Shown here one piece after another: positions 462 through 25,025 of a stretch of DNA of 25,025 bases. Positions within the stretch are counted from its first letter, which is position 1, and each line of letters opens with the position of its first letter. The stretch comes from a virus. The stretch is taken from IMG/VR virus record IMGVR_UViG_3300030106_001208, positions 1 through 25,025 of that record, one strand, 5' to 3'. Below the pieces are notes generated by a model. The model was not told the DNA's origin. It saw nothing but the letters and a program-made list of their open reading frames with translations, and made no database searches. The translations under genes were made by a program, and so were the position numbers.

Positions 462-630
462 ATAACCCTGCCCAATCTAGGTACACACAGCCCATCAGAT
501 AACCAAGCGTAAGTAACACACCTGCAAAGCAAAGCATTTTGATAACATAGTATGTACCTCTATGCTTGCGATGTATGGTTGTAATATTAATATGATCTCG
601 TATGAGATTATGATTTAATTTACGTTTCAT
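454..630 (-). CDS. Small single-pass membrane protein
   Basis: A 58-residue protein. A longer reading from an ATG at 642 exists, but only the ATG at 630 has a good ribosome site: GGAGGG at 635-640 lies just upstream of it, while nothing suitable precedes 642. The ATG at 630 also forms an ATGA overlap with the stop of the upstream exonuclease gene, which suggests translational coupling. The N-terminal half is basic and polar (many K, R, H, N). The second half holds one hydrophobic segment of about 20 residues (from YYVIKMLCFAG to YLMGCVYL), ending in a short acidic tail. No family is recognised. It sits between a nuclease and an annealing protein, so a holin role is not favoured by position, though size and topology alone would permit one. 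Confidence 0.6.
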   Translation of the reverse strand: MKRKLNHNLIRDHINITTIHRKHRGTYYVIKMLCFAGVLLTLGYLMGCVYLDWAGLYD

Positions 631-1571
631 TCTACCCTCCATATTTTTTTTGCATTAAGTAAAACTTCTGGGTTCATGTCATTCCAACCAAACAACCCAT
701 TCCATTGAGGATCGCACAAGCGTAAGACATCTTCTATGTTATCTGCTGCTTTGAGCAATCTCTCTCTTCTTTGACAACTCTCAAAAATTAGTTGTAAAGA
801 TTCTTGTAACTCATCCTCGGTAGGAGAAAATGTTTTATACCCACTTCTGTTTGCATACACAATGGTTGGCATTTTTTTTGTTAGATGATAATATCCTGCT
901 ATCTGTGTCATGTGTGCAGCTCTGATACTAGAGGGTAAACTATTTGATCTAGGAGCTTCATGCACGTTACTAGTCCATTGTGTTTTCAACTCTATACATT
1001 GACTATAATCAGGCTTGCCATTGTAAGGCAGCTCACACTTTGGTAAGTCTCCAAACAAATCTACTTCGCCTTCTAATCTATTAAGTCTATGTTGCTTTTG
1101 TGCATCAAGCAATCCTTCAATAGCATGATTGAATACAAGCTCTAACTCAGTATGTGTTCCTTGATCAGACTTTCTCCATTGCATCTCGCCTTTAATTTCT
1201 TTCTCAGCAAATTGACTTTCTAATTTATATTGTATTTCTATCTTTTCTTTTTCTTTATCTCGCCAACTAGGGCTTTCATATTCTTGCAATCTTTCTTTTG
1301 CATACTTCAAAGCATCAGCAAGAGATACATCTTCAAGTAAATGTTTATCGCAAGCTTCTTGAACTGTTGTGCCTGCGTGCATTTTAGTATTTACAATTTT
1401 GTATTTATCTATTGTTGCTAGTGCTAAATCTCTGTCTCCATCAGTCTCCCCTTTAACAATACCCCATGCTTTTTCTACTCTAGGTCTTATAATTAGTTTG
1501 TCATAAAATGTTTTTGCATCGCTTACAGCAGGATTGCTATGATGGTTGTAAGTTTTATTCCATTGACTCAT
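627..1571 (-). CDS. PD-(D/E)XK exonuclease (RecB/Cas4-like)
   Basis: A 314-residue protein with the motifs of the RecB/Cas4-type PD-(D/E)XK nuclease fold in the right order. A G-T-x-V motif I segment lies near residue 68 (HAGTTVQEACDKHLL). The catalytic core is at 186-197, with D188, E194 and K196 in GKPDY...IELKT. The QxxxY motif is at 223-227 (QIAGYY). Lambda-type and RecB-type phage exonucleases resect dsDNA ends so that an annealing protein can load, and the probable annealing protein is encoded downstream in the same operon. The start ATG (1569-1571) has no Shine-Dalgarno. With the proposed minus-strand -10 at 1581-1586 the mRNA would be nearly leaderless. The N-terminal about 60 residues are unassigned. 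Nuclease fold confident; exact substrate inferred from context. Confidence 0.75.
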   Translation of the reverse strand: MSQWNKTYNHHSNPAVSDAKTFYDKLIIRPRVEKAWGIVKGETDGDRDLALATIDKYKIVNTKMHAGTTVQEACDKHLLEDVSLADALKYAKERLQEYESPSWRDKEKEKIEIQYKLESQFAEKEIKGEMQWRKSDQGTHTELELVFNHAIEGLLDAQKQHRLNRLEGEVDLFGDLPKCELPYNGKPDYSQCIELKTQWTSNVHEAPRSNSLPSSIRAAHMTQIAGYYHLTKKMPTIVYANRSGYKTFSPTEDELQESLQLIFESCQRRERLLKAADNIEDVLRLCDPQWNGLFGWNDMNPEVLLNAKKIWRVE

Positions 1572-2116: not shown

Positions 2117-2286
2117 TGAAGTATGAGATAGTTATAACCTTGCATTCAAACAGAAAGCCTACGCTATCAGAGTTAAACGACTTTCTCTTTTGCAAAATAC
2201 GAGACAAGGATCTTAGGTACACGATCAATACCAAAGCAGACCCTATGCAACTAACAAAGGAAAGCAATGACAAGAAGCCAACATGA
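2116..2286 (+). CDS. Small hypothetical protein
   Basis: A 56-residue reading frame starting at the ATG that overlaps the upstream stop by one base (TAATG). A purine-rich ribosome site (AAAGGGG, 2104-2110) lies just upstream. The first residues (MKYEIVITLHS) look like a beta-strand followed by a helix (PTLSELNDFL), then a basic, charged end. The frame fills exactly the space between two better-supported genes and overlaps the methyltransferase start by 20 nt, as expected for compact phage operons. No family is recognised; the evidence is position, start signals and frame continuity. Confidence 0.5.
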   Translation: MKYEIVITLHSNRKPTLSELNDFLFCKIRDKDLRYTINTKADPMQLTKESNDKKPT

Positions 2287-2797
2287 CTACTACCCTACGC
2301 CCTATAGTATCGTAGATACTGTTGTAAAGCTCATAGACGAGCATTGGGATGTCGATAGGATATGGGAACCCTGTGCAGGTGATATGCGTTTCAGCAACGC
2401 TCTAGGCAGGAATAATAGGCAAGTCATATCTACGGACATCAGAACCAACCAGAACTTCTACTGGTACAAGGAAGCCCTAGCCCCGGCACTAGTAACTAAC
2501 CCACCATTTAAAAGCATACGGGAGTTCATAGACCATGCCTTTGCTATCGGAGTGCAGAAGATGGCATTGGTATGCCCGGAGCGTCTATGGTCATGCGGTA
2601 GAGGGTATGCACAATGGCACAGGCACAGACCCTCGCAATGGATTAACTTGACGTGGAGAGAGGACTATCTCGGTAAGGGTGGCAAGCCGGATAGAGCGTT
2701 GGCTATTGCAGTATGGAACAGTCCGCATACAGAGCATTGCCAGTATCAGGTGTTGGATAAACTAACGAAGCAAGGAGATATTTATGAGACTCTCTAG
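2267..2797 (+). CDS. DNA adenine-type methyltransferase (orphan)
   Basis: A 176-residue class I SAM-dependent methyltransferase. After a DYYPTP start typical of phage DNA methylases comes motif I, EPCAGD (residues 34-39), for SAM binding. An acidic strand follows (VISTDI, 52-57), then catalytic motif IV, NPPF (78-81). NPPF/NPPY is the active-site signature of enzymes that methylate the exocyclic amino group of adenine (or N4 of cytosine). The protein is short and has no obvious target-recognition domain, so the recognised sequence cannot be predicted. A ribosome site AAAGGA (2256-2261) precedes the ATG. No restriction endonuclease lies nearby, so self-protection of phage DNA or regulation is likelier than a restriction-modification pair. 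Confidence 0.72.
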   Translation: MTRSQHDYYPTPYSIVDTVVKLIDEHWDVDRIWEPCAGDMRFSNALGRNNRQVISTDIRTNQNFYWYKEALAPALVTNPPFKSIREFIDHAFAIGVQKMALVCPERLWSCGRGYAQWHRHRPSQWINLTWREDYLGKGGKPDRALAIAVWNSPHTEHCQYQVLDKLTKQGDIYETL

Positions 2798-3287
2798 AGA
2801 GCTAACTAGAGTGGCTGCAAGGGTTAGCATACCACATACTTCTTTTTGTTTTAAAAGGGAAGCTACTAGAGTGTTACTCTCTAGTAAGCTCTCTAGAGAG
2901 TATGAACTTGAAAAAAGCTCTGTCAAGAGGGAAAATGCAAACCCTAGTAAAACTAGGCTCGGCAAGGATATAAAAACAATCGGTGTGAATGTGCAAAAGG
3001 AGAGAGATAATCAAAAGAGCGAATCACTTGAGGATAAAGCAACTGATGTTCAAAGATTGTTAGCTAAGACTAGCAAGCGTATGAATGCTAACTATAGGTA
3101 CGCAGTAAAGAAGCGATACCAGATGGATGATTTAGAGTGGAGATTGCAACGTATCTTTAAAAGATTGGAGCGACAATCTAGCAGGCAGACGTATCTTGAT
3201 ACAGTCAAGAGTGTTCGCAGATTGGATCGCAAGCATCAATTTATTTTTGTAAACAACTATGAGGAGTTATGGTCAATAAAAGGTTGA
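2784..3287 (+). CDS. Basic hypothetical protein
   Basis: A 167-residue protein rich in Arg, Lys and Ser, with no recognised family. The start is well supported: AAGGAG at 2772-2777, six bases before the ATG, overlapping the methyltransferase end by 14 nt. The first 45 residues are encoded by DNA full of CTAG palindromes, and the peptide repeats an LSRE motif (near residues 3-6 and again near 37-40). Residues 95-167 are strongly charged and probably helical (for example YRYAVKKRYQMDDLEWRLQR), consistent with nucleic-acid binding. The gene overlaps the DUF6362-like gene downstream. The reading is confident as a gene; the function is unknown. Confidence 0.6.
   Translation: MRLSRELTRVAARVSIPHTSFCFKREATRVLLSSKLSREYELEKSSVKRENANPSKTRLGKDIKTIGVNVQKERDNQKSESLEDKATDVQRLLAKTSKRMNANYRYAVKKRYQMDDLEWRLQRIFKRLERQSSRQTYLDTVKSVRRLDRKHQFIFVNNYEELWSIKG
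2789..2901. repeat. Cluster of CTCTCTAGAGAG palindromes within a coding region
   Basis: ACTCTCTAGAGAGC (2789-2802) and its exact reverse complement GCTCTCTAGAGAGT (2888-2901) bracket a 113-nt segment. Each arm is itself built on the 12-bp palindrome CTCTCTAGAGAG. Between them ACTAGAGTG occurs twice (2805-2813 and 2865-2873), and a further ACTAGAG...CTCTAGT inverted repeat covers 2865-2885. The arms could pair as a long hairpin or act as two separate palindromic protein-binding sites. They lie at the very start of an open reading frame, just behind its ribosome site, so either structure could affect its translation or transcription through the operon. Confidence 0.6.
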
Positions 3288-12132: not shown

Positions 12133-14660
12133 TGACCTATACAAGTCCTAGATATACCAACTGGACTGCTGGTGAGCTTTCAGATAGATTAGATGGTAGA
12201 ACAGATCTTACAAGATATTTTAACGGAGCAAAGTCTTTAGAAAATTTTATAGTCTATCCTGCTGGTGGTGCAGCAAGGAGACCGGGTACAAAGTTTTTAC
12301 ATGAAGTAAAAGTAAGTGCGAATGCAGCACGACTAATACCTTTTGAATTTAACACTACGTCTGCAAATACCTATGTATTAGAATTTGGTAATAATTATTT
12401 TAGAGTGTATCAGGATGGTGGTATCGTAACTGAAACAGGTAAAACTATTTCCGGTGCAACCAAAGCTAACCCTGTTGTTATCACAGCAACCTCACATGGC
12501 TTTAGTAATGGGGATCATGTTATTATTGGCAGCGTTGCAGGTATGGTGGAACTCAATGGAGTAACAGGAATAGTTGCAAACAAAACGACAAACACTTTTG
12601 AACTTACAGATGTTGATGGTACAAATATTAACAGCACAGGGTTTACTACGTACACTTCCGGAGGTACAGCAAGTCGTATTGTAGAGATAACCACAACGTA
12701 TACTACTGCTCAAATATCTGAAATCAAAGTAACACAATCTGCGGATGTTATGTTTGTAACACACAACGACCATCCCGTTAGAAAGATACAAAGAACAAGC
12801 AATACGGACTGGACTATCTCCGATGTCTCTTTTATAAACGGCCCGTACCTAGATGAGAATGCTACTACAACTACTCTTACTCCAAATGGTCGAAGTGGTA
12901 GCATTACTCTTACTGCATCAGGAGATACATTTGTTTCTACTGATGTAGGAAGATTAGTAAAAATATATAATGGTTATGCAAAGATAACAGCATTTACTTC
13001 TGCAACTGTAGTTACTGCTACTGTGCAAACAGATGAGTTAGGAGTAGCAGAGATACTACCAACTTATGCTAGTAACACAATTAGTTTTGTAGAAGGTGAT
13101 CCTAGCAGTACAGGATCATCCCACAATGATTTTATACGAGATAGCAACAAACAGTTTGTCATAGAAGGTTTTACTGAAGGTATGACGATTACTGCAAGTG
13201 GTGCATCAAATAGTGCAAACAATAGAGATTATGAAATTGTAAAAGTAACAAGTGATGAAATAACTTTAGTGCCTGTAGATGATGTTGTAAATGAATCTGC
13301 AAGTAATACAATTACTCTTGTTGGAAAGCTAAATGCCACCGATGCTTTTTCTCTAGGAGCTTTTTCAGAGACTACAGGATTTCCAAGAGCCTGTGCTTTC
13401 TATGAGCAGCGTTTAGTGTTTGCAGGTACAACTAGTCAACCGCAATCTTTATTCTTTAGTGTTGCCGGTGATTTTGAAAACATGACAGAAAGCGATAGTG
13501 ATAGTTCTGCTATGAACTATACAATCGGTAGCAATCAGGTTAACAGAATATTGTACCTTGCATCATCAAGAAGTATGATCGTAGGAACAACTGGTGGTGA
13601 GTTTGTAGTCCGAGCATCAGGAACAGACGAGCCAATTACTCCTACAAATATACAAATTAAACAACAGGCAAGTTATGGTAGTGCTGATATACAACCAGTA
13701 CAAGCAGGAACCTATACTTTGTTTGTGCAAAGAGCAAAAAGAAAAATAAGAGAACTAGGTTATGTATTTGATACAGATTCTTTTCAAGCAGTAGATCTAA
13801 CTATTCTTGCAGATCATGTTACAGAAACAGGAGTGTTAGAGCTTGCGTATCAGCAAGAACCTTTCTCTATTGTCTGGGGTACAACAACCGATGGTAGATT
13901 GATTGGTCTTACCTATCGAAGAGAAGAACAGGTAGTGGCATGGCATCAACATAAATTAGGAGGTTCTTTTACGACAGGTGGCGTAACCACTAATCATGGT
14001 ATTGTAGAAAACATAGCTGTAATACCGGGAGAACTTAATCAAGATAATTTATACATGGTAGTAAAAAGAACTATCAATGGTGCAACGAGAAGATATGTAG
14101 AAATATTATCCGATATAGATTTTGGAACAAATATACAAGATGCTATCTTTGTGGATAGCAGTCTAACCTATTCAGGATCTAGTACATCAAGTCTATCAGG
14201 TCTTGACCATTTAGAAGGGCAAACTGTTTCTATTTTAGAAGAAGGAGCAGCTCATCCAGACAAGACAGTATCAAGCGGAAGTATTGCAACTGATAGAGCA
14301 ACAACAAAAGCTCAAGTAGGATTAGGTTATACATCTACTTTGAGAACTGTAAGGTTAGAATCAGGGAGTGCAAGTGGTACAGCTCAGGGCAAAATTAAAA
14401 AAATTCATAGTGTTATTGTTCGTTTTTTTCGTACTGTGGGTGCTTCTGTGGGAACTAGTACAGACAATGTCGATACCATCCCCTTCAGAGACAGTTCCGA
14501 TCCAACAGACACAGCAGTACCATTATTTACAGGAGACAAAACCATAGAAGCTCAACCCTCTTGGGATACAGAAGGTGCAATCGTAGTGCAGCAGACACAA
14601 GCATTACCTATGACGATTGTTGGTATCTATCCAAGAGTAGTAGTACAAGATTTTGATTGA
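12132..14660 (+). CDS. Tail tubular protein B / nozzle (T7 gp12-like) with FCCH-like insert
   Basis: An 842-residue protein. The start (NWTAGELSDRLDGRTDLTRY, then GAKSLENFIVYPAGGAARRP) is diagnostic for phage tail tubular protein B. It is confirmed by later PRACAFYEQRLVFAGTTSQP, SSRSMIVGTTGGEFVV and LELAYQQEPFSIVWGTTTDG segments. Residues about 109-181 (KANPVVITATSHGFSNGD, then ELNGVTGIVANKTTNTFEL, then YTSGGT) form a beta-rich insert of the type annotated in databases as a ubiquitin-activating enzyme FCCH domain. That name reflects similarity of fold, not function. The protein forms the tail nozzle that carries the fibres. The last residues (MTIVGIYPRVVVQDFD) fit the family. One-base overlap at both ends. 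Confidence 0.88.
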   Translation: MTYTSPRYTNWTAGELSDRLDGRTDLTRYFNGAKSLENFIVYPAGGAARRPGTKFLHEVKVSANAARLIPFEFNTTSANTYVLEFGNNYFRVYQDGGIVTETGKTISGATKANPVVITATSHGFSNGDHVIIGSVAGMVELNGVTGIVANKTTNTFELTDVDGTNINSTGFTTYTSGGTASRIVEITTTYTTAQISEIKVTQSADVMFVTHNDHPVRKIQRTSNTDWTISDVSFINGPYLDENATTTTLTPNGRSGSITLTASGDTFVSTDVGRLVKIYNGYAKITAFTSATVVTATVQTDELGVAEILPTYASNTISFVEGDPSSTGSSHNDFIRDSNKQFVIEGFTEGMTITASGASNSANNRDYEIVKVTSDEITLVPVDDVVNESASNTITLVGKLNATDAFSLGAFSETTGFPRACAFYEQRLVFAGTTSQPQSLFFSVAGDFENMTESDSDSSAMNYTIGSNQVNRILYLASSRSMIVGTTGGEFVVRASGTDEPITPTNIQIKQQASYGSADIQPVQAGTYTLFVQRAKRKIRELGYVFDTDSFQAVDLTILADHVTETGVLELAYQQEPFSIVWGTTTDGRLIGLTYRREEQVVAWHQHKLGGSFTTGGVTTNHGIVENIAVIPGELNQDNLYMVVKRTINGATRRYVEILSDIDFGTNIQDAIFVDSSLTYSGSSTSSLSGLDHLEGQTVSILEEGAAHPDKTVSSGSIATDRATTKAQVGLGYTSTLRTVRLESGSASGTAQGKIKKIHSVIVRFFRTVGASVGTSTDNVDTIPFRDSSDPTDTAVPLFTGDKTIEAQPSWDTEGAIVVQQTQALPMTIVGIYPRVVVQDFD

Positions 14661-15088
14661 TGAGAATAATAAAGTTTATACCAGAACACGCAAAAGAATT
14701 AGTAGTAGAAAATAAATTATCTTTTGGCACACAATCACCAGATCATGACTGGGAACACCACATGGAGCGAGCAGCTTTGCATGACGCTTGGACAGGTATA
14801 GAGAACGGACACATTATCGCAGCAGCAGGTTTCATTCCTATGTGGGATGGTGTTGCAGAATGTTGGTTTATAGGAAGCGATAGAATACAAACAAGAATTA
14901 AGTCTGTTGTAAAAACTACAAAAGATATTATGAGCAAGGCACCTTACGCAAGGATGCACGCAAATGTAAAAGCTGATTGGATGCAGGCAATACGCTTTGC
15001 AGAATTTTTAGGTTTTAAAAAAGAAGGTTTAATGAAAAAGTTTGGCCCAGAGGGTGCAGACTATATTGTAATGGGAAAGGTAAAATAA
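14660..15088 (+). CDS. Internal virion protein A-like (T7 gp13-like, GNAT-fold)
   Basis: A 142-residue protein. The ATG at 14660 overlaps the preceding TGA (TGATG); a TTG one codon earlier is also possible. The plan resembles T7 gp13, with an N-terminal IKFIPEHAKEL helix and a central AECWFIGSDRIQTRIKSVVK segment (compare WFVTSDQ... in gp13). A C-terminal AIRFAEFLGFKKEGLMKKFG segment follows, like the acetyltransferase-fold ending FLKTIGAVF. The canonical GNAT acetyl-CoA motif (Q/R-x-x-G-x-G/A) is absent, so enzymatic activity is unlikely. gp13 is needed for particle morphogenesis. Its place right after the nozzle gene and before a gp14-like gene supports the assignment. Confidence 0.6.
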   Translation: MRIIKFIPEHAKELVVENKLSFGTQSPDHDWEHHMERAALHDAWTGIENGHIIAAAGFIPMWDGVAECWFIGSDRIQTRIKSVVKTTKDIMSKAPYARMHANVKADWMQAIRFAEFLGFKKEGLMKKFGPEGADYIVMGKVK

Positions 15089-15089
15089 T

Positions 15090-15566
15090 ATGGCAAATGC
15101 TTTAATGATAGCAGGTACAGCAATAACTGTACAAGGACAACTAGCAGCAGGTAGGGCTGCTAAGAAAGCAGCAGATTATAATGCAAGTGTAAATGAAAGA
15201 AATGCACAAGCTGCTGAAATACAAGCAGAGAATATTGACAGATTAAATAAGATAAAAGAATTACAAGATAGAGAAAAATTTAGAAACCTAAATGACCGAA
15301 CACAAATGTTGTATAGAGGTCAGGGGTGGGCAGCAACGACTGGTACACCATTAAAAAAACTTTTACAAAATGCGTTGCGTTTTGAACAAGACATAGAAAT
15401 ACAAAATTACAATTCAAGAGTAAAACAGTTACAAGCAAAAGAAGTAGCAACCAACCAAAGACTAGAAGCAGAACTAACAAGAATGGAAGGAAGAGCTGCA
15501 AGAACAATATCAAGGTATCAAGCTGCTGGAACTTTATTAACTAGTGCAGGAGCTTTGTTAAAATAA
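15090..15566 (+). CDS. Internal virion protein B-like (T7 gp14-like)
   Basis: A 158-residue, highly helical protein. It begins with a hydrophobic stretch (ALMIAGTAITVQGQLAAGRA), continues as a long Ala/Gln/Glu/Asn helix (YNASVNERNAQAAEIQAENI) and has a glycine break (MLYRGQGWAATTGTP). Another long helix follows, then a hydrophobic end (TLLTSAGALL). This plan is seen in podovirus gp14-like ejection proteins, which insert into the host outer membrane at the start of DNA ejection. The ribosome site is AAAGG (15077-15081). The TAA overlaps the next ATG by one base. No enzyme motif is visible. Confidence 0.6.
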   Translation: MANALMIAGTAITVQGQLAAGRAAKKAADYNASVNERNAQAAEIQAENIDRLNKIKELQDREKFRNLNDRTQMLYRGQGWAATTGTPLKKLLQNALRFEQDIEIQNYNSRVKQLQAKEVATNQRLEAELTRMEGRAARTISRYQAAGTLLTSAGALLK

Positions 15567-17173
15567 TGAAAGTAAGATTATACGAAAGTCAATTAAATAG
15601 AACAGAGGAGACAGGAGCTAGACCTTTGACCGCTCAAATTAATCCTAGGACTTTTTCTGCTCTTGCTGGTGCAGCTACAGAAATAGGAGGTTCTTTATTT
15701 AAACTAGGAGCAGAGAAACTTAGATATGATCAAGCTAATGAAAGACTTGATGTAGAAAACAAAGCTACAGTTGCTTTGATATCATTTCAAGATCAAGCTC
15801 AAGATATAATTAGAAAAGCATCTAATGATGATCCTACTGTATCACATACTGCTGTGCCAGAAGCTATAAAAAAATTATACGATACAACTTTACTTTCTTT
15901 GAAAGATAACAAAAAAGTTCAAGAAAAATTTGGAGTAAATGGATTAAAAGTATTTAGTAATCTTAAACAAAAATTTTTATCAACAAACTTGCAAAAAAAA
16001 ATTGATTTAGGAAAATCAAATGTACAAACAAATATTGATTTAGATATAAAAATTGCAGGAGACTCTGGTGGTAATATAGTGGAAAGATTACAAGCAGCAG
16101 AAGATGCTGCTACTAAAATTTCTATTGCTCAGACAACTGGTGTTTATGATGCAATAACTGCAAATACAGAAACTAAAAACCTTAACTACAAACTAGTAGA
16201 AAGCAGTATCGCAAGTGCCATGAATGCAACAGACAACGCATTTGGTATAGCATTAGCTATTGAAGATGGAGAGTATAAGGAAGATGTAATATTCAATAAA
16301 TATTTTACAAAGCTCAGTTTAGATCAACAAGAAAAAATTATTAAGTACGCACAGGATAAAGCTAATAGCGTAGATAATTTATTAGAAGCAGAAGAAAAAA
16401 AAGAGAATGAAGAAGAAGAAAACAAAATAAAAGAACTAAAAAGATCTTTAGATAATATTGTGGATATAAAAGATGGACTACCAATATTCAATCAATTAAT
16501 AAGTATGCAAGCTTTGAGTTTAACAGAAAGACAAAAGTACGAAAAGTTTTTAAACATATCAAGGCAAGGAGCAGCAGGAAGTGCTGATGAAGATGATCCT
16601 ACTATTTTAAAAGAGATAGCTACTTTAAAAGTTAATAATCAATTAGACGAAGAATATTTATTACAAAATTATTCAAAACTAACTAATAGTACATTTACTT
16701 CTGAAAGAAAAGGATTGTTAACAGAATTAAATGCAGCGGAGAAAAAAGCAAAAGAAGAATTAAAAAACACTTTTAGAGTTTCTGAGGAAGCTTTGGAAGC
16801 TTTTTCAGGAGACCTGTTTCATAAAAAATTAATTCAAGGATATAATAGATATTACAATGAACTAATAGATTTTACGCAAGCAGAAAATAGAAGTGTAGAA
16901 GAGATAGAAAATAAAGTAGAAAAATTAAAGAAAAAGTTTGCTGATACAGAACTAGGTTATTACAGGGAAGATTTAAAAGGATATATAGTTAGAGCTAACA
17001 AACAATTAGCTCTAGGAGATTTTGGTCAAATTACACAAGATACACCTTTACAAGATATTTATGATTTAATTAAAAAACATTACAATGATAATCCTAATCA
17101 AGAATTACCTCAAGCTTTGAAAAATGTTAGAGACAATTTAAATGATTACAAATATATGTTAGATATACAATGA
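15566..17173 (+). CDS. Internal virion protein C-like (gp15-type), coiled-coil rich
   Basis: A 535-residue protein, strongly charged and mostly helical. A long Glu/Lys-rich coiled-coil lies at about 276-300 (AEEKKENEEEENKIKELKRS). The N-terminus (NPRTFSALAGAATEIGGSLF) resembles the start of large virion proteins such as gp15-like ones, in which a short segment precedes GA.....GA..L..LG. The rest shows no enzyme motif. It sits between the gp14-like and the giant proteins, as gp15 does in T7. The DNA here is visibly richer in A+T than the head genes. Overlaps with neighbours at both ends (TAATG; ATGA) suggest translational coupling. Family assignment is by position and composition. Confidence 0.5.
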   Translation: MKVRLYESQLNRTEETGARPLTAQINPRTFSALAGAATEIGGSLFKLGAEKLRYDQANERLDVENKATVALISFQDQAQDIIRKASNDDPTVSHTAVPEAIKKLYDTTLLSLKDNKKVQEKFGVNGLKVFSNLKQKFLSTNLQKKIDLGKSNVQTNIDLDIKIAGDSGGNIVERLQAAEDAATKISIAQTTGVYDAITANTETKNLNYKLVESSIASAMNATDNAFGIALAIEDGEYKEDVIFNKYFTKLSLDQQEKIIKYAQDKANSVDNLLEAEEKKENEEEENKIKELKRSLDNIVDIKDGLPIFNQLISMQALSLTERQKYEKFLNISRQGAAGSADEDDPTILKEIATLKVNNQLDEEYLLQNYSKLTNSTFTSERKGLLTELNAAEKKAKEELKNTFRVSEEALEAFSGDLFHKKLIQGYNRYYNELIDFTQAENRSVEEIENKVEKLKKKFADTELGYYREDLKGYIVRANKQLALGDFGQITQDTPLQDIYDLIKKHYNDNPNQELPQALKNVRDNLNDYKYMLDIQ

Positions 17174-19365
17174 CAGATGTAATACAAAGATTACAAACAG
17201 CTTATGAAGATTTTGAAGTTTTGTCTGAAGCAAATGCTTTTGAAGGGCAAAACACTAGTGAAGTAACAGATAGAACTCTTACTAACAAAATTGCTGATTT
17301 TGGTATAGATACAGGACAAGCTATTGTTTCAGGTATAGAAGATGCTGGAGTAAACTTCAATCAGTTTTTAGCAGAAGTAGTAGCAGCTCCAGATACACTT
17401 GCAGATTTTATTGGACAAAAAATTACTGATAATCCTAATTTTAATTATCCGGGTTTGAATAAGGAAACTGCAACCAAAAATATTCAAGATGGATTGTCTT
17501 GGATGGATGAAAACTTAGTACCAAAATTTTTAAGAGGTTCTACAAAAAACATAGAGAGAAAATATACCAATCAAACTTATGGTAATATAATACAAGGTGT
17601 TTCACAATTTGCAACAGGAGCAATTCCAGCAGCAAAGATTGTAGGTCTAACAAAAGCATTACCGGGAATGATAGCTCCTAGTTCAGCAGCAAGAGGTCTT
17701 ACTTGGGGAATGATTGCTGATGCAACAGTAATAGATCCCAATGCGGAAGAACTTATAGCCCCTGTATTTAGAACCTTTATAACAAATTCTACCAAAGATG
17801 AAATAGATACACTTGAAGATACAGTTTTATCTATATTGGAAAAATACGATCAAGATAATGATGTTATCAAAAGAATAAAAACAGCTAATGAAGGTGCTTT
17901 GATTGGAGCTTTAGTGGAAGGTATTATTGCAGGTGCTAAAGCGTTGCCTTGGAAGACTCTAACAAAAGCATTAGGTGTAGCTGGTGCAGCATCAATAGCA
18001 GCAGGTAAAAAAGTAGTAGATACTGCAAAGCGAGTTGAGATAGATGATAGTGCAACTTTAGGATCTACTAATATACCTTTAAAGTTAAAACCAGAGGACA
18101 GTAAAAAAAAAACTTTAAATAACAATAATCTTTCTTTTTTAAATGAAAAATATTCTGATGTTGATATATCTATATCCGAAAAAGATAAAGGAATAACATT
18201 ATCAGAATTAGTAGTTCCTGAAGGTAAAAGAAATCAAGGTATAGGAACGCAAGTTATGCAAGATATTATAAACTACGCAGACAATAATAATAAAACTATA
18301 GCTTTAACTCCAGATACTACTTTTGGTGCTAGTAAAACAAGATTGAAAGAATTTTACAAAAATTTAGGTTTTGTTGAAAACAAAGGAAGAAACAAAGATT
18401 TTCGTTTTACAGAAACTCTTATAAGAAAACCATTATCAGTTGATGACTTTAATATTAATCCTAACAAGATTAAAGCACCAACAGAGAATGAAACAGGAAT
18501 ACTTGCTTTCCATGGAAGTGCTGCTGATTTTGATGAGTTTAAATTAGATAAGATTGGTACAGGAGAGGGCAATCAAGCATTTGGATATGGTTTGTATTTT
18601 TCAGATAGCGAAGATATAGCAAAATTTTATACTTCAGCTTTAAGAAAAAGAGAACCAGTATTATTTAAAGGAGAGCCTATTAAGTATATATCTGATACAG
18701 CAGAAGGTGATTTGGTTAGTAATGATATTATAAACTTAAATAGAGTTAGAGATAGAATAGCTGATAAAGGAATGTCTTTACAAGAAGCTAAAGATTCAGC
18801 AATAGATGAACTACAACAAACTATAAGTAACTTTCAAAAAAATGATGAGAATAAAAAAGTTATAAATGAATTAAACAAAGACATAAATTTTATTAATAAT
18901 TTACAAGATAAAGATTTTTCTTATAACACAGGAAAAACATACAAAGTTGATATAAAAGCTTTTAGAGATAATTTACTTGATCACGATAAACCAGTATCTA
19001 AACAAAATAAAATTATAAAAGATATTATACAAAAAATATATCTTGAAAATAATTTAAAACCTTTGAGAAAAACTACTACTGGAGAAGATGTTATTGATGA
19101 ATTAGCAGTTAAGTTTAGTAAGTTAGAAAATAATAAATTAATATATGATAATAAAAAAGTAAGCGAAATATTAAATGCTGCTGGCATCAAAGGTATTAAA
19201 TACAAATCAGGTCAACTATCTGGAATGGAAAGCGAATCTAATAATTTTGTAATATTTGATGATAAAATTATAAAAGTATTAGCTAAGTATGGAATAGTAG
19301 CACCAGTAGCAGTAAGTGCTATCAAAGGTAATAAAGAACAACAAACACAAGACAACTCAATATAA
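17170..19365 (+). CDS. Polyvalent virion protein with GNAT and ADP-ribosyltransferase (ART-PolyVal) domains
   Basis: A 731-residue protein within the ejection-protein block, coupled to the preceding gene by ATGA. Residues 1-240 are helical and of unknown function; 242-280 is hydrophobic and may touch membrane. Residues 331-418 look like a GNAT acetyltransferase: the acetyl-CoA motif KRNQGIGTQV (353-362), then RLKEFYKNLGFVE (391-403). Residues 445-700 match ART-PolyVal: FHGS (447-450), KIGTGEG...FGYGLYFSDS (461-480), YKVDI...NLLDHDKPVSKQ (591-612), then AAGIKGIKYKSGQ and NNFVIFDD (691-698). H448 and Y476 are the likely NAD-contacting residues. If ejected with the DNA, it could modify host proteins early, as T4 Alt does. 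Domain identities are strong; delivery and targets are inferred. Confidence 0.75.
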   Translation: MTDVIQRLQTAYEDFEVLSEANAFEGQNTSEVTDRTLTNKIADFGIDTGQAIVSGIEDAGVNFNQFLAEVVAAPDTLADFIGQKITDNPNFNYPGLNKETATKNIQDGLSWMDENLVPKFLRGSTKNIERKYTNQTYGNIIQGVSQFATGAIPAAKIVGLTKALPGMIAPSSAARGLTWGMIADATVIDPNAEELIAPVFRTFITNSTKDEIDTLEDTVLSILEKYDQDNDVIKRIKTANEGALIGALVEGIIAGAKALPWKTLTKALGVAGAASIAAGKKVVDTAKRVEIDDSATLGSTNIPLKLKPEDSKKKTLNNNNLSFLNEKYSDVDISISEKDKGITLSELVVPEGKRNQGIGTQVMQDIINYADNNNKTIALTPDTTFGASKTRLKEFYKNLGFVENKGRNKDFRFTETLIRKPLSVDDFNINPNKIKAPTENETGILAFHGSAADFDEFKLDKIGTGEGNQAFGYGLYFSDSEDIAKFYTSALRKREPVLFKGEPIKYISDTAEGDLVSNDIINLNRVRDRIADKGMSLQEAKDSAIDELQQTISNFQKNDENKKVINELNKDINFINNLQDKDFSYNTGKTYKVDIKAFRDNLLDHDKPVSKQNKIIKDIIQKIYLENNLKPLRKTTTGEDVIDELAVKFSKLENNKLIYDNKKVSEILNAAGIKGIKYKSGQLSGMESESNNFVIFDDKIIKVLAKYGIVAPVAVSAIKGNKEQQTQDNSI

Positions 19366-19377
19366 ACTAGGTTAACA

Positions 19378-22300
19378 ATGGCTAGACAAACAGATCTTTT
19401 TCCCCAAGATAATAAACAAGAAAGTTTATTGTCAAAACAAAATGTAGATCAACAAGTATTAGATGCTTCTGCTACAGGTGGAGTTACAAAACAAGCAGAA
19501 GATCCTACACAAGACAGAATACAGTTAGCAGGTGGTGGAGGAATAAGTAGTTCGTTTTTAGAACTTCTCAAAGCTGCAAATATTATGGGTGGTGCAAGAG
19601 AAGGTGTAGAGCAGGCACCAGAGGAAGTTATGGGAAGAGTTCCTACTCCTATAGAACAAAGATTAGGCAAAGGTAAAGACATACAAGCTACTAAAGATTA
19701 TTATGCTAGACAATTATTAAGTCCAGAAAGATATGAGTCATTTAAGAGCAGAGGATTTTCAGCAGCAGATGCTAATGAGGAACAAGTTTTAAAAAAAGCA
19801 AGAGAAGCATTAGAAACAGATCTTTCTATGGAGGGTGTTCCTTTATCTCAAGATATGTTAAGAATGACTACTGGTGAAGATGCTATAACAGTTAGAAAAA
19901 ATCCAAAAACAAAAAAAGGTAAAGTAATTATAGGAGGGGATTTAGATTTTAACTTTGAAAAAATAAATACTTCTGATGACATAAAAAAAGTCATACAAGC
20001 AACTAGTAAAATATATAGAAAACAAACTGATGCCGCTGTAGGGGGTAAGGTAACATTAGATCAAACTAAAGAGGAAGCAAGTCAACTACTAGCTAATGAA
20101 CTTGGCATAACAAAAAAAGCTTTACAAAAAAACAGAGGTTTATTAGATGCAGCAGAGTCAACTGCACTTAGATCTTTATTGGTAAACTCTGCAAGTAAGA
20201 TAGACGAACTTACAAAAAAAATTAATGGTATAGGCCCTAATGGAGAAGAGATAGCTAAAGATAGAAGCACAGAGACTATGTTTGCTTTTCGCAGACAGAT
20301 GGCCTTGCACGCTGGTTTGCAAATTGCAGCCAAAAAACAACAAGCAGATTTGGCAAGGGCATTAAGTTCTTACAGAATTGATGTTGGATCAAGTTTACAG
20401 TTTCAAGATAAATTAATGGATGATGTTATTAAATCCGGAGGTGGTTATGAAGAAACTGAAAAACTTGCTAAAGGTGTACAAAAAGCATTGCAAGAAGGTG
20501 GAGGTGCAGGGTTAAATACTTTTGTTGATAAGGCTACTGCTTATGGAAATGCAGCATACGAGATATACATAAATGGTTTATTGTCTGGGCCAAAAACTTT
20601 TTTTAAAAATGCTTTAGGAACACCTTTGTTTATGACATATCTTCTTGCTGAAGATACTATTGCTGCAACTTATGGTGCTATTGAAAGAGGAGGTAAAAAA
20701 CTTTTTAACAAACAGCTTACACCTAATGATGCAGAGGGTATATATTTAAGTCAGATTGCAGCTAGAGTATATGGGTATATTCACGCTTTTAGGGATGCAG
20801 CTTCTAATAGTGTAGAAACTCTTAAAACCGAAGCATCTGCATCAGCAGTAGGAAGAGTTGATAGTGCAAGATTTAGAGCTATTGATTCACAAACTTTAGG
20901 ATTGTCTGGTTACTTTGGTGCTGCTGTAGATTTTTTTGGAAGGATAACTAGAATACCCGGTTTAGCTTTGCAGTCTACAGATGATTTTTGGAAGGGTATT
21001 GCCCAAAGAGCAGCATTATATGAGGAAGCAGTTAACAGAGCTTCAAAGGCAAAATATCTTGGCAAGTCAAATGAAGAAGCTGCACAAGATGGCATAGAGG
21101 TATTATTAGATCCACAGTCAATAGCCAAAGACTTAGATCACGCAGCAAACTATGCAACTCTAACAAGTGATACAGGAGCTTTAGGAAAAATAGCAAGAAC
21201 TATACAAAACTACCCAGAGAAGTTTCCTATAGGTAGATTGCTTATGCCTTTTGCAACAGTACCAACAAATGTGATTGCTAGAACAGTTGAAAGAAGTTTA
21301 TTCAATGTACCTGCAATAAAAAAAATATTTACAGGTACACCTAAAGAAAGATCAAAGTCTATAGCAAAATTAGGTTTAGCTAGTTCGATGTTTTTATATG
21401 TAAGTCATTTGTCAACACAAGGAAGAATAACAGGAGCATTACCAAGAGACAAAAAAGAAAGAGAGATGTTACCGCCGGGATGGCAACCTTTTAGTTTAGT
21501 TTTTAGAGGTGAGGATTTTCCAGAAGATAAACCTATGTATGATAATTTTGGTAACCCTAACGGAAACTTACTATATGTTAGTTACGCAGGGTTAGAGCCT
21601 GTAGGTTTAATATTTGCTTTAGGGGCAAACTATGTAGAAGGTGCAAGAAGAAGTAGAGATATAAATATGCACCAAAATAAAGCAGCAAGATATGCTGTTG
21701 CAATGTTTGATTACATAGAAGAAATGCCTATGATAAATACTTTTGGAACAATATCAAAAGCTTTTCAAGAGGGAGATCCTAGTATATTGTACAACTCTCC
21801 TGTAGCAAACTTTTTAGGCCCTATACCAAAACCATTTAGTTCTTTAATAAGAAATGTAAAAAAATTAGAAGATACAGAAATCAAAAAAAAGACAGAGGAG
21901 TTTGAAAGATTTACAGCAGAAGATGTATATGAGGATGCAAGAAAAAATAATAGATATGGTGCAGATGGTCAACCTTTCTTTGAAAATATTGGAACTCCTA
22001 AAAATGCTTTTAACTTTAGAGAGGTATACCATAGAATAGTAACAGCTCAAGTAGGAGATGAAGAGAGAGAAGCACAGCAATATGATGTATTTGGTATTCC
22101 TAAAACAAGAGGTGTAAAATTTTCTATTAATCCTGTTGTAGCAATGTGGAATATGATTACTCCATTTAGTATAAGCTATGGACAAAAGTTTACTCCTCTG
22201 CAAGAAGAGATAGTTCGATTGAGAGTACCTCTTAGTATTGAAAGAAACACTTACAAAAATTTAAAACTATCAAAGTTACAAAGTAGTAAATGGACTGAGT

Positions 22301-22527
22301 ATGCAAAAAACAAACAAGTGTTGAGAAAACTTACATTTAGAGAAGCAATAGAAAAACTATTTTATTCAAGAGCTTATAGTAGGTTTAATGACAAACAAAA
22401 ACAATCAGCATATAGAAAGATAGAGCAACAATATTATAATGCAGCAGCAGAAGAATTTTTATTAATACAATATCCTGATTTATCAGAAGCAATAGAATCT
22501 AGAAAATTTTTATTAGGAGGAAACTGA
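19378..22527 (+). CDS. Giant internal/ejection virion protein (gp16-position)
   Basis: A 1049-residue protein and the largest gene here, in the place of T7 gp16. The N-terminal 300 residues are polar and charged. Residues 385-435 include AYEIYINGLLSGPKTFFKNA and FMTYLLAEDTIAATYGAI, like an S-x-x-L-S-G-P-K-T-x-x-x-N segment found in giant phage proteins. FPIGRLLMPFATVPTNVIAR (616-635), ITGALPRDKKERE (684-696) and GWQPFS (701-706) recur in the same large family (PF-x-R/V-x-PTN and GWQPYS). VSYAGLEPVGLIFALGANYV (734-753) closes that block. No lytic transglycosylase motif was seen in its N-terminus, unlike T7 gp16. It probably spans the host membrane during ejection. No clear Shine-Dalgarno precedes the ATG. 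Confidence 0.65.
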   Translation: MARQTDLFPQDNKQESLLSKQNVDQQVLDASATGGVTKQAEDPTQDRIQLAGGGGISSSFLELLKAANIMGGAREGVEQAPEEVMGRVPTPIEQRLGKGKDIQATKDYYARQLLSPERYESFKSRGFSAADANEEQVLKKAREALETDLSMEGVPLSQDMLRMTTGEDAITVRKNPKTKKGKVIIGGDLDFNFEKINTSDDIKKVIQATSKIYRKQTDAAVGGKVTLDQTKEEASQLLANELGITKKALQKNRGLLDAAESTALRSLLVNSASKIDELTKKINGIGPNGEEIAKDRSTETMFAFRRQMALHAGLQIAAKKQQADLARALSSYRIDVGSSLQFQDKLMDDVIKSGGGYEETEKLAKGVQKALQEGGGAGLNTFVDKATAYGNAAYEIYINGLLSGPKTFFKNALGTPLFMTYLLAEDTIAATYGAIERGGKKLFNKQLTPNDAEGIYLSQIAARVYGYIHAFRDAASNSVETLKTEASASAVGRVDSARFRAIDSQTLGLSGYFGAAVDFFGRITRIPGLALQSTDDFWKGIAQRAALYEEAVNRASKAKYLGKSNEEAAQDGIEVLLDPQSIAKDLDHAANYATLTSDTGALGKIARTIQNYPEKFPIGRLLMPFATVPTNVIARTVERSLFNVPAIKKIFTGTPKERSKSIAKLGLASSMFLYVSHLSTQGRITGALPRDKKEREMLPPGWQPFSLVFRGEDFPEDKPMYDNFGNPNGNLLYVSYAGLEPVGLIFALGANYVEGARRSRDINMHQNKAARYAVAMFDYIEEMPMINTFGTISKAFQEGDPSILYNSPVANFLGPIPKPFSSLIRNVKKLEDTEIKKKTEEFERFTAEDVYEDARKNNRYGADGQPFFENIGTPKNAFNFREVYHRIVTAQVGDEEREAQQYDVFGIPKTRGVKFSINPVVAMWNMITPFSISYGQKFTPLQEEIVRLRVPLSIERNTYKNLKLSKLQSSKWTEYAKNKQVLRKLTFREAIEKLFYSRAYSRFNDKQKQSAYRKIEQQYYNAAAEEFLLIQYPDLSEAIESRKFLLGGN

Positions 22528-22528
22528 G

Positions 22529-24529
22529 ATGACAGTATCATCAACCACAACTAAAGTAAGCTATGCAGGTAATGGCAGCACTACTGCCTTCGCATACACA
22601 TTCAAGATATTTGCAGCAGCAGAAATAACTGTAATTATCAGAAGCTCTACAGGAACAGAGACAGTTAAGACTTTGACCACAGACTATACTCTGTCAAACA
22701 TAGGTGTAGATGGTGGCGGTAATGTTACCTTTGGATCTGCCCCTGCTAGTGGTGAAACAGTTGTGCTTATTAGAAATACTCCAAACACTCAAACACTAGA
22801 CCTAGTGGAAAACGATCCGTTTCTCTCAAGCTCCTTCGAAGATACACTAGATAAGATTACACATCAGCTTATAGAGCAACAAGAAGAGATAGACAGAAGT
22901 ATCAAAGTATCTCGTACTAACAGCATTACTAGTTCAGAGTTTACTACCAACGCATCGGATAGAGCTAGTAAAGTGTTAGGCTTTGATAGTTCTGGAGAGT
23001 TGTCGGTTACAACAGAGTTAGGAACATTTAAGGGTGACTGGGCTGCATCTACATCGTATGTCATTAGAGACTTAGTCAAAGATACATCTACAGGAAATAT
23101 CTTTTTCGTAAACACAGCTCATACTTCTAGCGGTAGTGAGCCATTAACAAGTAACGCAAACTCTGCAAAATACTCACTTATCGTAGATGCTTCTTCTGCT
23201 ACTACCCAAGCCACTAATGCTGCCGCAAGTGCCACAGCTAGTGCGAGTTCTGCCGCTTCAAGTGCGAGTTCGGCCAGTACAGCCACGACCCAAGCCGGAA
23301 ATGCCTCGACTTCTGCAAGTACCGCAGCTACACAAGCAACCAATGCAGCTAACTCTGCTACTGCTGCCGCTGCAAGTGCTACTGCCGCTGCTGCTAGTGC
23401 AGACAACTTTGATGATGTTTACTTAGGAGCAAAGTCAAGCGATCCTTCTACAGACAATGACGGAGATGCTTTGGCTGCTGGTATGTTGTATTTCAATACA
23501 ACTACCGATGCTTTGAAAGTTTACAATGGTTCATCTTTTCAAACAGTAACAGCAGGGTCTATTTTAAGTTCTGTTGCAGGTGATACTACTCCGCAGCTTG
23601 GCGGCAACTTAGATACTAACTCTCATAACATACTAATAGATGATGCACATTATATAGGAGATGAAAACAATAAAGAGCAGATTATATTTCAAACTACCAC
23701 AGATGCAGTAAACCAGTTTGATGTAACAAATGCAGCAACAAGCAATGCACCAAAGCTATCTGCAACAGGTGATGATAGCAACATAGATTTAGATTTAGAA
23801 GCAAAAGGTACAGGTCATGTTACTGTACGAGGAAATACCAATCCCGGAGCGATACAGTTTAACTGCGAGAGTAATTCACATGGACAAATCGTTAAATCAC
23901 AACCGCATTCTGCTTCAGTTACAAACGTACTGACACTACCACCGGGAAGCGATCAAGAGATAGTAGGGGCAAGTGCTACACAGACTTTGACAAACAAAAC
24001 TATAGATGCTTCTCAGTTATCAGGCACAGTTGCTAATGCAAGACTAGATGCACAGTTACAGGATGTAGCAGGGCTTGCTGTAACGAATGGTAATTTTATT
24101 GTAGGAGATGGCAGCAACTTTGTAGCAGAAAGTGGATCTACAGCAAGAGCAAGTTTAGGATTAGCAATAGGATCTGATGTACAAGCTTTTGATAGTGATA
24201 CAGCAAAGACCGATGTAACACAAAGTTTTACAGCACCGCAAAGAAATGCTTTGACTGTAGATAACGATGGTAGCTTTGACATGAATGCTAATAATAATTT
24301 TAAGTGTACTCCTAGTGGTAACTTTACATTAACATTCACTAACTTTGCAGATGGACAGAGCGGTTACATCTTGTTAATAAATAGTGGTGGGCATACTGTA
24401 TCTTTACACAGTAACAGTAAAGGAGATGCAAGTATTGCAGCAACAGTATCTAGTGCAGGCACCTATCTTATATCGTATTTATCAGATGGTACAAATGCGT
24501 ATCTAACAAACTCAGCGGTGTTTGCATAA
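22529..24529 (+). CDS. Tail fibre protein
   Basis: A 666-residue protein, with GGAGG before the ATG. The N-terminal ~130 residues (SYAGNGSTTAFAYTFKIFAA, then LIRNTPNTQTLDLVENDPF, then FEDTLDKITHQLIEQQEEID) are the T7-type fibre attachment domain that docks on the nozzle. Residues ~218-292 are an Ala/Ser/Thr-rich shaft of imperfect repeats (ATTQATNAAASATASASSAA and similar). A DVYLGAKSSDPSTDNDGDAL, then YFNTTTDALKVYNGSSF collar-like repeat follows. The C-terminal domain (FTLTFTNFADGQSGYILLIN, then GTYLISYLSDGTNAYL) is beta-rich, as in trimeric fibre tips. It recognises the host surface. The base composition returns to that of the head genes. Confidence 0.88.
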   Translation: MTVSSTTTKVSYAGNGSTTAFAYTFKIFAAAEITVIIRSSTGTETVKTLTTDYTLSNIGVDGGGNVTFGSAPASGETVVLIRNTPNTQTLDLVENDPFLSSSFEDTLDKITHQLIEQQEEIDRSIKVSRTNSITSSEFTTNASDRASKVLGFDSSGELSVTTELGTFKGDWAASTSYVIRDLVKDTSTGNIFFVNTAHTSSGSEPLTSNANSAKYSLIVDASSATTQATNAAASATASASSAASSASSASTATTQAGNASTSASTAATQATNAANSATAAAASATAAAASADNFDDVYLGAKSSDPSTDNDGDALAAGMLYFNTTTDALKVYNGSSFQTVTAGSILSSVAGDTTPQLGGNLDTNSHNILIDDAHYIGDENNKEQIIFQTTTDAVNQFDVTNAATSNAPKLSATGDDSNIDLDLEAKGTGHVTVRGNTNPGAIQFNCESNSHGQIVKSQPHSASVTNVLTLPPGSDQEIVGASATQTLTNKTIDASQLSGTVANARLDAQLQDVAGLAVTNGNFIVGDGSNFVAESGSTARASLGLAIGSDVQAFDSDTAKTDVTQSFTAPQRNALTVDNDGSFDMNANNNFKCTPSGNFTLTFTNFADGQSGYILLINSGGHTVSLHSNSKGDASIAATVSSAGTYLISYLSDGTNAYLTNSAVFA

Positions 24530-25025
24530 TGGGTATACTCCAAAATGAAAATGCAATACCTAGTGCAGCAGGTGCATCTGGATTTTATTCACATCAGATA
24601 GAACAAAGTGTAAGGCTACCTAGAAGCACTACAAGTAATAATGGAACAAATGGAGGTGGATTTTATAGAAATCCTGCTGGTTTTCCCACACCTACAGATA
24701 GTAAAAAATTTACATTTAGTACTTGGGTCAAAAAAGCTAGTGCAAATTTAAACTTGCGTCAAACTTTAATTTCTAATATGGTAGGTGGCTCTGAAAAAGT
24801 CATATACTTAGATTTTGATAACAGTTCATATTATGATAAAGTAATGAGTGAACAGTTTGGTTCTGGACAATATTCGTATGATGCAGTTTTAAGAGATGTT
24901 TCAGGTTGGTATCATTTGGTATTTATATGGGATACTACTCAAAGTTCAGCAGTAGACAGACAAAAGTTTTATATAAATGGCACACAGCAAGACGTAGGGT
25001 CAACAAGAAGCAATTGGAGTTTAAA
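24529..25025 (+). CDS. Tail-associated LamG/concanavalin A-like protein, cut by window
   Basis: The ATG at 24529 overlaps the fibre stop by one base (TAATG); 165 codons are seen before the window ends. The start (MGILQNENAIPSAAGASGFY) is followed by a Gly/Asn-rich linker. A LamG-type beta-sandwich begins at about residue 64 (KKFTFSTWVKKASANLNLRQ), with WYHLVFIWDTTQ and QKFYINGTQQ as the usual W-x-H-x-x-x-x-x-D and FYVNG strands. Such domains bind glycans and occur in many phage tail proteins after the fibre gene. It probably assists receptor binding. The remaining C-terminus cannot be described. Confidence 0.75.
   Translation, partial: MGILQNENAIPSAAGASGFYSHQIEQSVRLPRSTTSNNGTNGGGFYRNPAGFPTPTDSKKFTFSTWVKKASANLNLRQTLISNMVGGSEKVIYLDFDNSSYYDKVMSEQFGSGQYSYDAVLRDVSGWYHLVFIWDTTQSSAVDRQKFYINGTQQDVGSTRSNWSL

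What the first reader, a model, noticed from the sequence alone, without database searches (positions are those of the whole stretch)
17170..19365. Probable virion-delivered GNAT + ADP-ribosyltransferase fusion
The gene lies inside the internal/ejection protein cluster, yet its C-terminal two thirds are two modification domains in a row: GNAT-like (acetyl-CoA motif near residues 353-362) and ART-PolyVal (FHGS, GYGLYF, LLDHDKP, NNFVIFDD). T4 Alt is the known precedent for an injected ADP-ribosyltransferase. A single ejected protein with two post-translational modification domains in a short-tailed phage would be a take-over device that acts before any phage gene is expressed. Seen: motifs and gene order. 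Known: the domain families. Inferred: packaging into the virion, ejection, activity.
Basis: partly seen in the sequence, partly recalled or inferred. Interest (0 to 1): 0.78.

Follow-up and report, generated by a model that had tools for sequence, protein, structure and literature searches.

The report
Swappable payload on phage ejection protein
A marine short-tailed virus of bacteria carries, among the proteins it probably shoots into the cell with its DNA, one with a fixed front half and an exchangeable back half; here the back half is two protein-modifying enzyme domains, while near-identical sister viruses carry quite different payloads at the same spot.

Summary
The gene (17170-19365, 731 aa) and both domains are real. 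The GNAT domain (res 319-425) passes Pfam's cut-off. The ART-PolyVal domain (res 439-731) is weak by Pfam, but 71 of 72 relatives match, it folds at pLDDT 89.7 and it matches phage ART-PolyVal structures (E to 4.5e-17). H448, Y476 and N692 are invariant in 86 homologues. The gene lies between gp15-like and gp16-like ejection genes, as do ART genes in many other podoviruses. In cyanopodophage A4 the protein encoded at this position is a chain of the solved pre-ejectosome and is the best PDB match to our ART model.

The GNAT+ART pair is not new: polyvalent proteins with this pairing were described in 2017. The new result is that sister phages, 87-99% identical over most of the flanks, keep residues 1-308 (one has a 77%-identical version) and replace everything after, ending at or just past the stop codon. 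Two other payloads sit there in this clade. Five other clades show the same exchange, and some ~320-aa slot proteins have no payload.

Best reading: a constant ejection domain with an interchangeable effector, resembling polymorphic (MuF) toxins but without MuF or an evident immunity gene. Packaging, ejection and catalysis are inferred.

The parts
17170..19365 (+). slot gene, 731 aa: constant N-terminal domain plus GNAT plus ART
17170..18093 (+). constant N-terminal ejection-type domain, res 1-308
   Evidence: 93-95% aa identity in L002, L003, L004; family found in 53 of 63 surveyed slot proteins; related regions inside fused internal virion proteins
18094..19368 (+). exchangeable cassette: no similarity here to the closest relatives, both flanks 87-99% identical for the most part; 26% GC against 34% in the N-terminal part and gp16
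18124..18444 (+). GNAT domain, res ~319-425; acetyl-CoA motif RNQGIG (res 354-359)
   Evidence: Pfam; alignment
18484..19362 (+). ART-PolyVal-type domain, res 439-731
18511..18513 (+). H448, invariant in 86 homologues
18595..18597 (+). Y476, invariant in 86 homologues
19243..19245 (+). N692, invariant in 86 homologues; candidate third active-site residue (D697 at 19258-19260 is D in 73 of 86)
14657..15088 (+). gp13-like protein, GNAT-like, hits phrog_308 internal virion protein
15090..15566 (+). gp14-like internal virion protein (phrog_418)
15566..17173 (+). gp15-position protein, 535 aa, no library match; assigned by gene order
19378..22527 (+). gp16-like internal virion protein, 1049 aa (phrog_6651; pelagiphage internal virion protein D)
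22529..24529 (+). tail fibre

Best explanation
The gene encodes a fourth ejection-cluster protein of a T7-like marine podovirus. Its constant N-terminal ~308 residues probably dock it in the internal core (pre-ejectosome) and carry it into the cell. The C-terminal part is an exchangeable effector cassette. In this phage the cassette is a short GNAT acetyltransferase followed by an H-Y-type ART-PolyVal ADP-ribosyltransferase, which most likely modify host (possibly defence) proteins in the first minutes of infection. Recombination in the linker after residue 308 and in the short gap before gp16 swaps the cassette between otherwise near-identical phages. Shown: the domains, the gene position, recurrence of the slot, and cassette exchange. 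Inferred: packaging and ejection (supported by the A4 pre-ejectosome), enzymatic activity, and host targets.
For: Domains. Slot: ART-bearing genes sit between gp14/gp15-like and gp16-like genes in L032, L033, L035, L037, L045, L047, L049, L053 and others, and are fused to gp16 in L055, L062, L090. Same GNAT+ART fusion in the same slot of distant phage L115/L268. Virion link: best PDB match of the ART model is 9k3a_B, a chain of the cyanopodophage A4 pre-ejectosome; it is A-4L ORF27, encoded between the internal protein ORF28 and ORF26, which is another chain of the same structure. L002/L004 N-termini and the gp16-like protein hit the same internal-virion family phrog_6651, 1375 aa, at its two ends, and single fused proteins hold both parts in CRP-361 and L012/L013. 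Exchange: identity with L002/L003/L004/L008 runs to 18092-18093, vanishes, and resumes at 19369 (19451 for L004). The same pattern occurs in L277/L278, L229/L272, L285/L286, L225/L223 and L281/L275. Slot proteins of 321-326 aa lack any payload (L217, L219, L233, L244).
Against: No virion proteomics or activity for this phage or its close kin. The A4 match is moderate (E 5.5e-3, probability 1.00, TM 0.35), its place in the chain is not reported, and profile comparison with A-4L ORF27 finds no significant sequence similarity. The GNAT is short and lacks the usual first helices by sequence; no model was made. The third active-site residue is N or D, not the classical Glu. The slot N-terminus of the window protein itself did not hit phrog_6651, although 93-95%-identical N-termini did.
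Confidence: 0.68

Rival explanations
1. The C-terminal domains act inside the producing cell late in infection, and the N-terminal region only links them to assembly; nothing is ejected.
For: No direct proof of packaging here. T4 ModA and ModB are phage ARTs that are not injected.
Against: Position in the ejection operon across many divergent phages; slot protein of A4 is in the solved pre-ejectosome; fused versions place the ART inside the gp16-like ejection protein itself.
Confidence: 0.12
2. The C-terminal part is mainly structural or a relic: enzyme folds reused as spacers of the internal core, with no activity needed.
For: Payload-free 320-aa versions exist; the classical catalytic Glu is replaced by N/D; the GNAT is short.
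Against: H448, Y476 and N692 unchanged in 86 homologues at about 30% identity; intact acetyl-CoA motif; unrelated payloads replace each other, which fits effectors better than a structural part.
Confidence: 0.1
3. A fixed two-enzyme take-over protein: GNAT and ART are a functional unit selected together.
For: The same fusion in the same slot of a distant phage (L115/L268); adjacent pairs elsewhere, also in the other order (L076, L166, L185); pairing noted in 2017.
Against: Most surveyed slot proteins lack one or both domains, and the closest relatives have other payloads. It can hold for the pair itself without contradicting the cassette model.
Confidence: 0.1

Closest known systems
Phage polyvalent proteins with ART (Tox-ART-HYD2/ART-PolyVal) and GNAT domains (Iyer et al. 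2017, PMC5512222)
   Same: Same two domain families, often neighbours in one polypeptide; encoded among virion genes; predicted to be injected.
   Different: Here a short three-part protein (731 aa) split from the gp16-like protein, and the payload is exchanged as a cassette behind a constant ejection domain; no LPD domain detected by Pfam.
MuF polymorphic toxins of temperate phages (Jamet et al. 2017, PMC5576092)
   Same: Constant virion-type N-terminus, variable C-terminal effector including ARTs, short forms without extension.
   Different: No MuF domain; no small immunity ORF (12 nt to the next gene); phages related to HTVC010P-type pelagiphages, temperate life not shown.
Cyanopodophage A4 pre-ejectosome protein (A-4L ORF27; PDB 9k3a chain B)
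   Same: Encoded between the internal protein ORF28 and the ORF26 protein; part of the virion pre-ejectosome; best PDB structural match to our ART model.
   Different: 1717 aa, no detectable sequence homology; match moderate.
T4 Alt
   Same: Virion-packaged, injected ADP-ribosyltransferase.
   Different: R-S-E active-site clade, contractile-tail phage, not in an ejection-protein operon; resemblance in role only.
T7 gp14-gp15-gp16 ejection proteins
   Same: Same gene order and neighbours; functional domains are known to move between ejection proteins (lysozyme, PMC8954989).
   Different: T7 has no fourth protein between gp15 and gp16 and no ART or GNAT payload.

Membership tests
ART-PolyVal (PF18760) / Tox-ART-HYD2 | Sequence match to the family model | tested here: inconclusive
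   Window protein 19 bits, below the 31.2 cut-off; 71 of 72 relatives match at E<=0.01, best 2e-9
ART-PolyVal (PF18760) / Tox-ART-HYD2 | H in strand 1 and Y in strand 2 | tested here: met
   H448 and Y476 invariant in 86 and inside predicted strands
ART-PolyVal (PF18760) / Tox-ART-HYD2 | D in strand 5 | tested here: met
   D697 present, D in 73 of 86; N692 of the same segment is invariant
ART-PolyVal (PF18760) / Tox-ART-HYD2 | ART fold | tested here: met
   AF2 pLDDT 89.7; ART-PolyVal structures in BFVD at E down to 4.5e-17; no solved ART was matched in the PDB list
GNAT | Match to a GNAT model and R/QxxGxG motif | tested here: met
   Acetyltransf_10 26.1 bits above the cut-off of 23.6; RNQGIG
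Polyvalent proteins | Two or more effector domains in one polypeptide encoded with virion genes | tested here: met
Polyvalent proteins | Large-polyvalent-associated (LPD) domains | tested here: not met
   none in P0001 or the gp16-like protein; present in related giant proteins. Common in the class, not obligatory
MuF polymorphic toxins | MuF domain at the N-terminus | tested here: not met
   no MuF match in Pfam
MuF polymorphic toxins | Small immunity ORF directly downstream | tested here: not met
   12 nt to the gp16 gene here; in other loci no ATG ORF above 77 aa in gaps of at most 226 nt (gaps over 250 nt were not examined)
T4 Alt | R-S-E active site | tested here: not met
   H-Y-N/D motifs instead
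Ejection (internal virion) proteins | Gene in the gp14-gp15-gp16 cluster | tested here: met
Ejection (internal virion) proteins | Presence in the virion and delivery to the cell | not testable with these tools
   only indirect, through cyanopodophage A4 9k3a

The most novel reading that the evidence does not exclude
Marine short-tailed phages keep a dedicated payload slot in their DNA-ejection machine: a constant ejection domain whose C-terminal effector is exchanged between near-identical phages, like polymorphic toxins but aimed at the cell being infected and without immunity genes. This would account for the unexplained under-recruiting islands at internal virion protein genes in marine phage metagenomes (Mizuno et al. 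2014, PMC3909814).
Probability: 0.5. Interest if true: 0.76.

Novelty: new variant of a known kind. Interest (0 to 1): 0.63.

Why it matters
If the slot delivers its payload, marine podoviruses of this group change their injected weapon by swapping a cassette while the machine stays the same. This makes a standing puzzle testable: why internal virion protein genes repeatedly fall in hypervariable islands of marine phages. Mizuno et al. called the reasons obscure (PMC3909814), and a 5.3-kb island of HTVC010P-type phages has an internal virion protein at its 3' end (PMC6487183). It also supplies a search recipe, the C-terminus of the ORF before the gp16-like gene, for early-acting, probably anti-defence, effectors.

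Tried and rejected
Direct PDB sequence search with the protein or the ART profile: nothing meaningful. The L002/L003/L008 payload was modelled poorly (pLDDT 67) and has no PDB match; a profile comparison with the ART alignment is negative, so I did not call it an ART although YRAxP and a late WGYFP motif look suggestive. The L004 payload has no Pfam, PHROG or NCBIfam assignment. Counting payload families by single-linkage clustering merged almost everything because payloads are themselves mosaics, so I relied on pairwise breakpoints. I considered T4 Alt-like, MuF toxin and assembly-chimera readings and rejected or down-weighted them for the reasons given. Sequence homology of A-4L ORF27 to the ART family could not be shown; HG and GEWGSGTYF motifs are seen only by eye.

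Full report
What is there. The window is a 25,025-bp IMG/VR virus record with the late region of a short-tailed phage: small and large terminase, portal (Head-tail_con, E 8e-151), scaffold/protease, major capsid, tail tubular A and B, a gp13-like GNAT-like protein, gp14-like, gp15-like, the gene in question, gp16-like, fibre. The nearest cultured relatives by tail tubular B are HTVC010P-type pelagiphages at about 51-54% identity, with the same order. The host is not known.

Domains. Residues 319-425 are a short GNAT with the acetyl-CoA motif RNQGIG. Residues 439-731 are an ART-PolyVal-type domain. The window sequence alone stays below Pfam's cut-off, but 71 of 72 relatives match the family, the model is confident (pLDDT 89.7, pTM 0.81) and BFVD returns ART-PolyVal proteins with E down to 4.5e-17. 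In 86 homologues H448, Y476 and N692 never change and D697 is D in 73. The search patterns used GTGEG and GLY stretches, so invariance there is biased; H448 and N692 were not in the patterns. Iyer et al. name His, Tyr and an Asp of strand 5 as active site; N692, at the start of that strand, is the more conserved and a candidate for the third position.

The pairing is known. Iyer et al. 2017 state that one polyvalent-protein GNAT family typically has the ART as neighbour in the same polypeptide. I find the pair, in either order, in L115, L076, L166, L127, L153 and L185 as well.

The slot. ART-bearing genes lie between gp14/gp15-like and gp16-like genes in a dozen divergent podoviruses and are fused into the gp16-like protein in L055, L062 and L090. 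A survey that selected loci only by their gp16-like protein found 63 complete slot genes. An N-terminal family seeded from the window covers 53 of them. Payloads differ: none (321-326 aa proteins L217, L219, L233, L244), ART (L218, L281), GNAT+ART (window, L268 = same contig as L115), the L003 module (L002, L003, L008), that module's relative plus GNAT (L278), the L004 module (L004, L213, L231, L277), and long unassigned regions. ART is a minority payload, so the ART-rich list reflects how those loci were found.

Exchange. Against L003, window DNA is 96.7% identical up to 18093 and 96.0% from 19369; against L002 89.9% and 95.9%; against L004 96.7-97.9% up to 18092 and 99.0% from 19451; against L008 87.5% upstream, 77% in the N-terminal half and 95.9% downstream. 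Nothing aligns between. The left break is in the linker after residue 308, the right one four bases after the stop codon (inside the gp16 start region for L004). The cassette is 26% GC, N-terminus and gp16 34%. Five other clades show the same break: L277/L278, L229/L272, L285/L286, L225/L223, L281/L275. L266/L269 shows the reverse, with the C-terminus kept and the N-terminal part exchanged. Three contigs from different metagenomes share one payload and junction, which argues against chimeras.

Virion link. The best PDB match of the ART model is 9k3a chain B, from the cyanopodophage A4 pre-ejectosome (E 5.5e-3, probability 1.00, TM 0.35). By sequence it is A-4L ORF27, encoded between ORF28 (internal protein, solved as 9k2v) and ORF26 (1114 aa, chain A of 9k3a): the same slot by gene order. 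Phormidium phage Pf-WMP3 protein 26 is a second cyanophage match. Profile methods do not connect ORF27 to our ART, so this is good positional and moderate structural support. Independently, phrog_6651 'internal virion protein' matches the N-terminus of L002/L004 slot proteins at its start and the gp16-like protein near its end, and in CRP-361 and L012/L013 both regions are one protein. The window's two genes therefore look like a split ejection protein with a payload at the split.

Mechanism. Most likely the N-terminal domain is packed with gp14-, gp15- and gp16-like proteins, leaves with them, and puts the C-terminal enzymes into the cell, where they modify host proteins early. The 2017 paper places this ART clade with protein-modifying ARTs and its GNATs with RimI-like enzymes. 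Exchange at high rate against a constant carrier is what one expects if targets differ between host strains, for instance defence systems. No immunity gene fits in the 12-nt gap, as expected for a weapon used by a phage on the cell it kills. Delivery, catalysis and target are inferred.

Relation to known kinds. It works like a MuF polymorphic toxin (constant virion-type N-terminus, variable C-terminus, short and long forms) but is not one: no MuF, no immunity gene. By domain content it belongs with polyvalent proteins. The new element is the dedicated exchange slot in the ejection cluster. It gives a concrete candidate reason for internal virion proteins in metaviromic islands, which Mizuno et al. 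found obscure. I did not map those islands, and the Skadi hypervariable region reported later lies by coordinates at the tail fibre, not at the slot.

Noticed in passing
window 14657-15088: The gp13-like protein is itself GNAT-like and hits phrog_308 internal virion protein; pelagiphage annotations call it acetyltransferase. The phage thus has two GNAT-type proteins in one ejection cluster.
   Followed up: partly
L002 5289-5906, L003 10925-11542, L005 9323-9988: An unassigned ~205-aa payload module (PRDESSGH...PAQ.GPPAH...ITMYRA...DVRWDGN...RWGYFP) also sits in giant polyvalent proteins of 2000-3300 aa, in L005 directly before the GNAT module.
   Followed up: partly
L004 3793-4770; L213, L231, L277: A second unassigned ~326-aa payload recurs directly or nearly directly behind the N-terminal region; no Pfam, NCBIfam or PHROG assignment for that part of the L004 protein.
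   Followed up: partly
L266 and L269; L008 6001-7632: Reverse exchange: slot C-terminus identical, N-terminal middle part different. L008 also has a diverged N-terminal middle with the L003 payload.
   Followed up: partly
L055, L062, L090: ART, N-terminal core and gp16-like region fused in one protein, with the ART in front of the core instead of behind it.
   Followed up: no
window 2267-3287: First of two overlapping ORFs matches only positions 209-373 of a DNA methyltransferase family (phrog_799); possibly a truncated or split gene.
   Followed up: no
window 627-1571 (-): Weak match to phrog_1706, labelled CRISPR/Cas system associated (E 0.0015).
   Followed up: no
window 24529-25023: ORF after the fibre has a Laminin_G_3/ConA-like lectin domain; similarity to the close relatives L002 and L003 ends just inside it (window 24605-24612).
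   Followed up: no
L284, L285, L286: Different payloads behind a related N-terminal region that the window-seeded N-terminal model does not detect: probably a second carrier family for the same slot.
   Followed up: no
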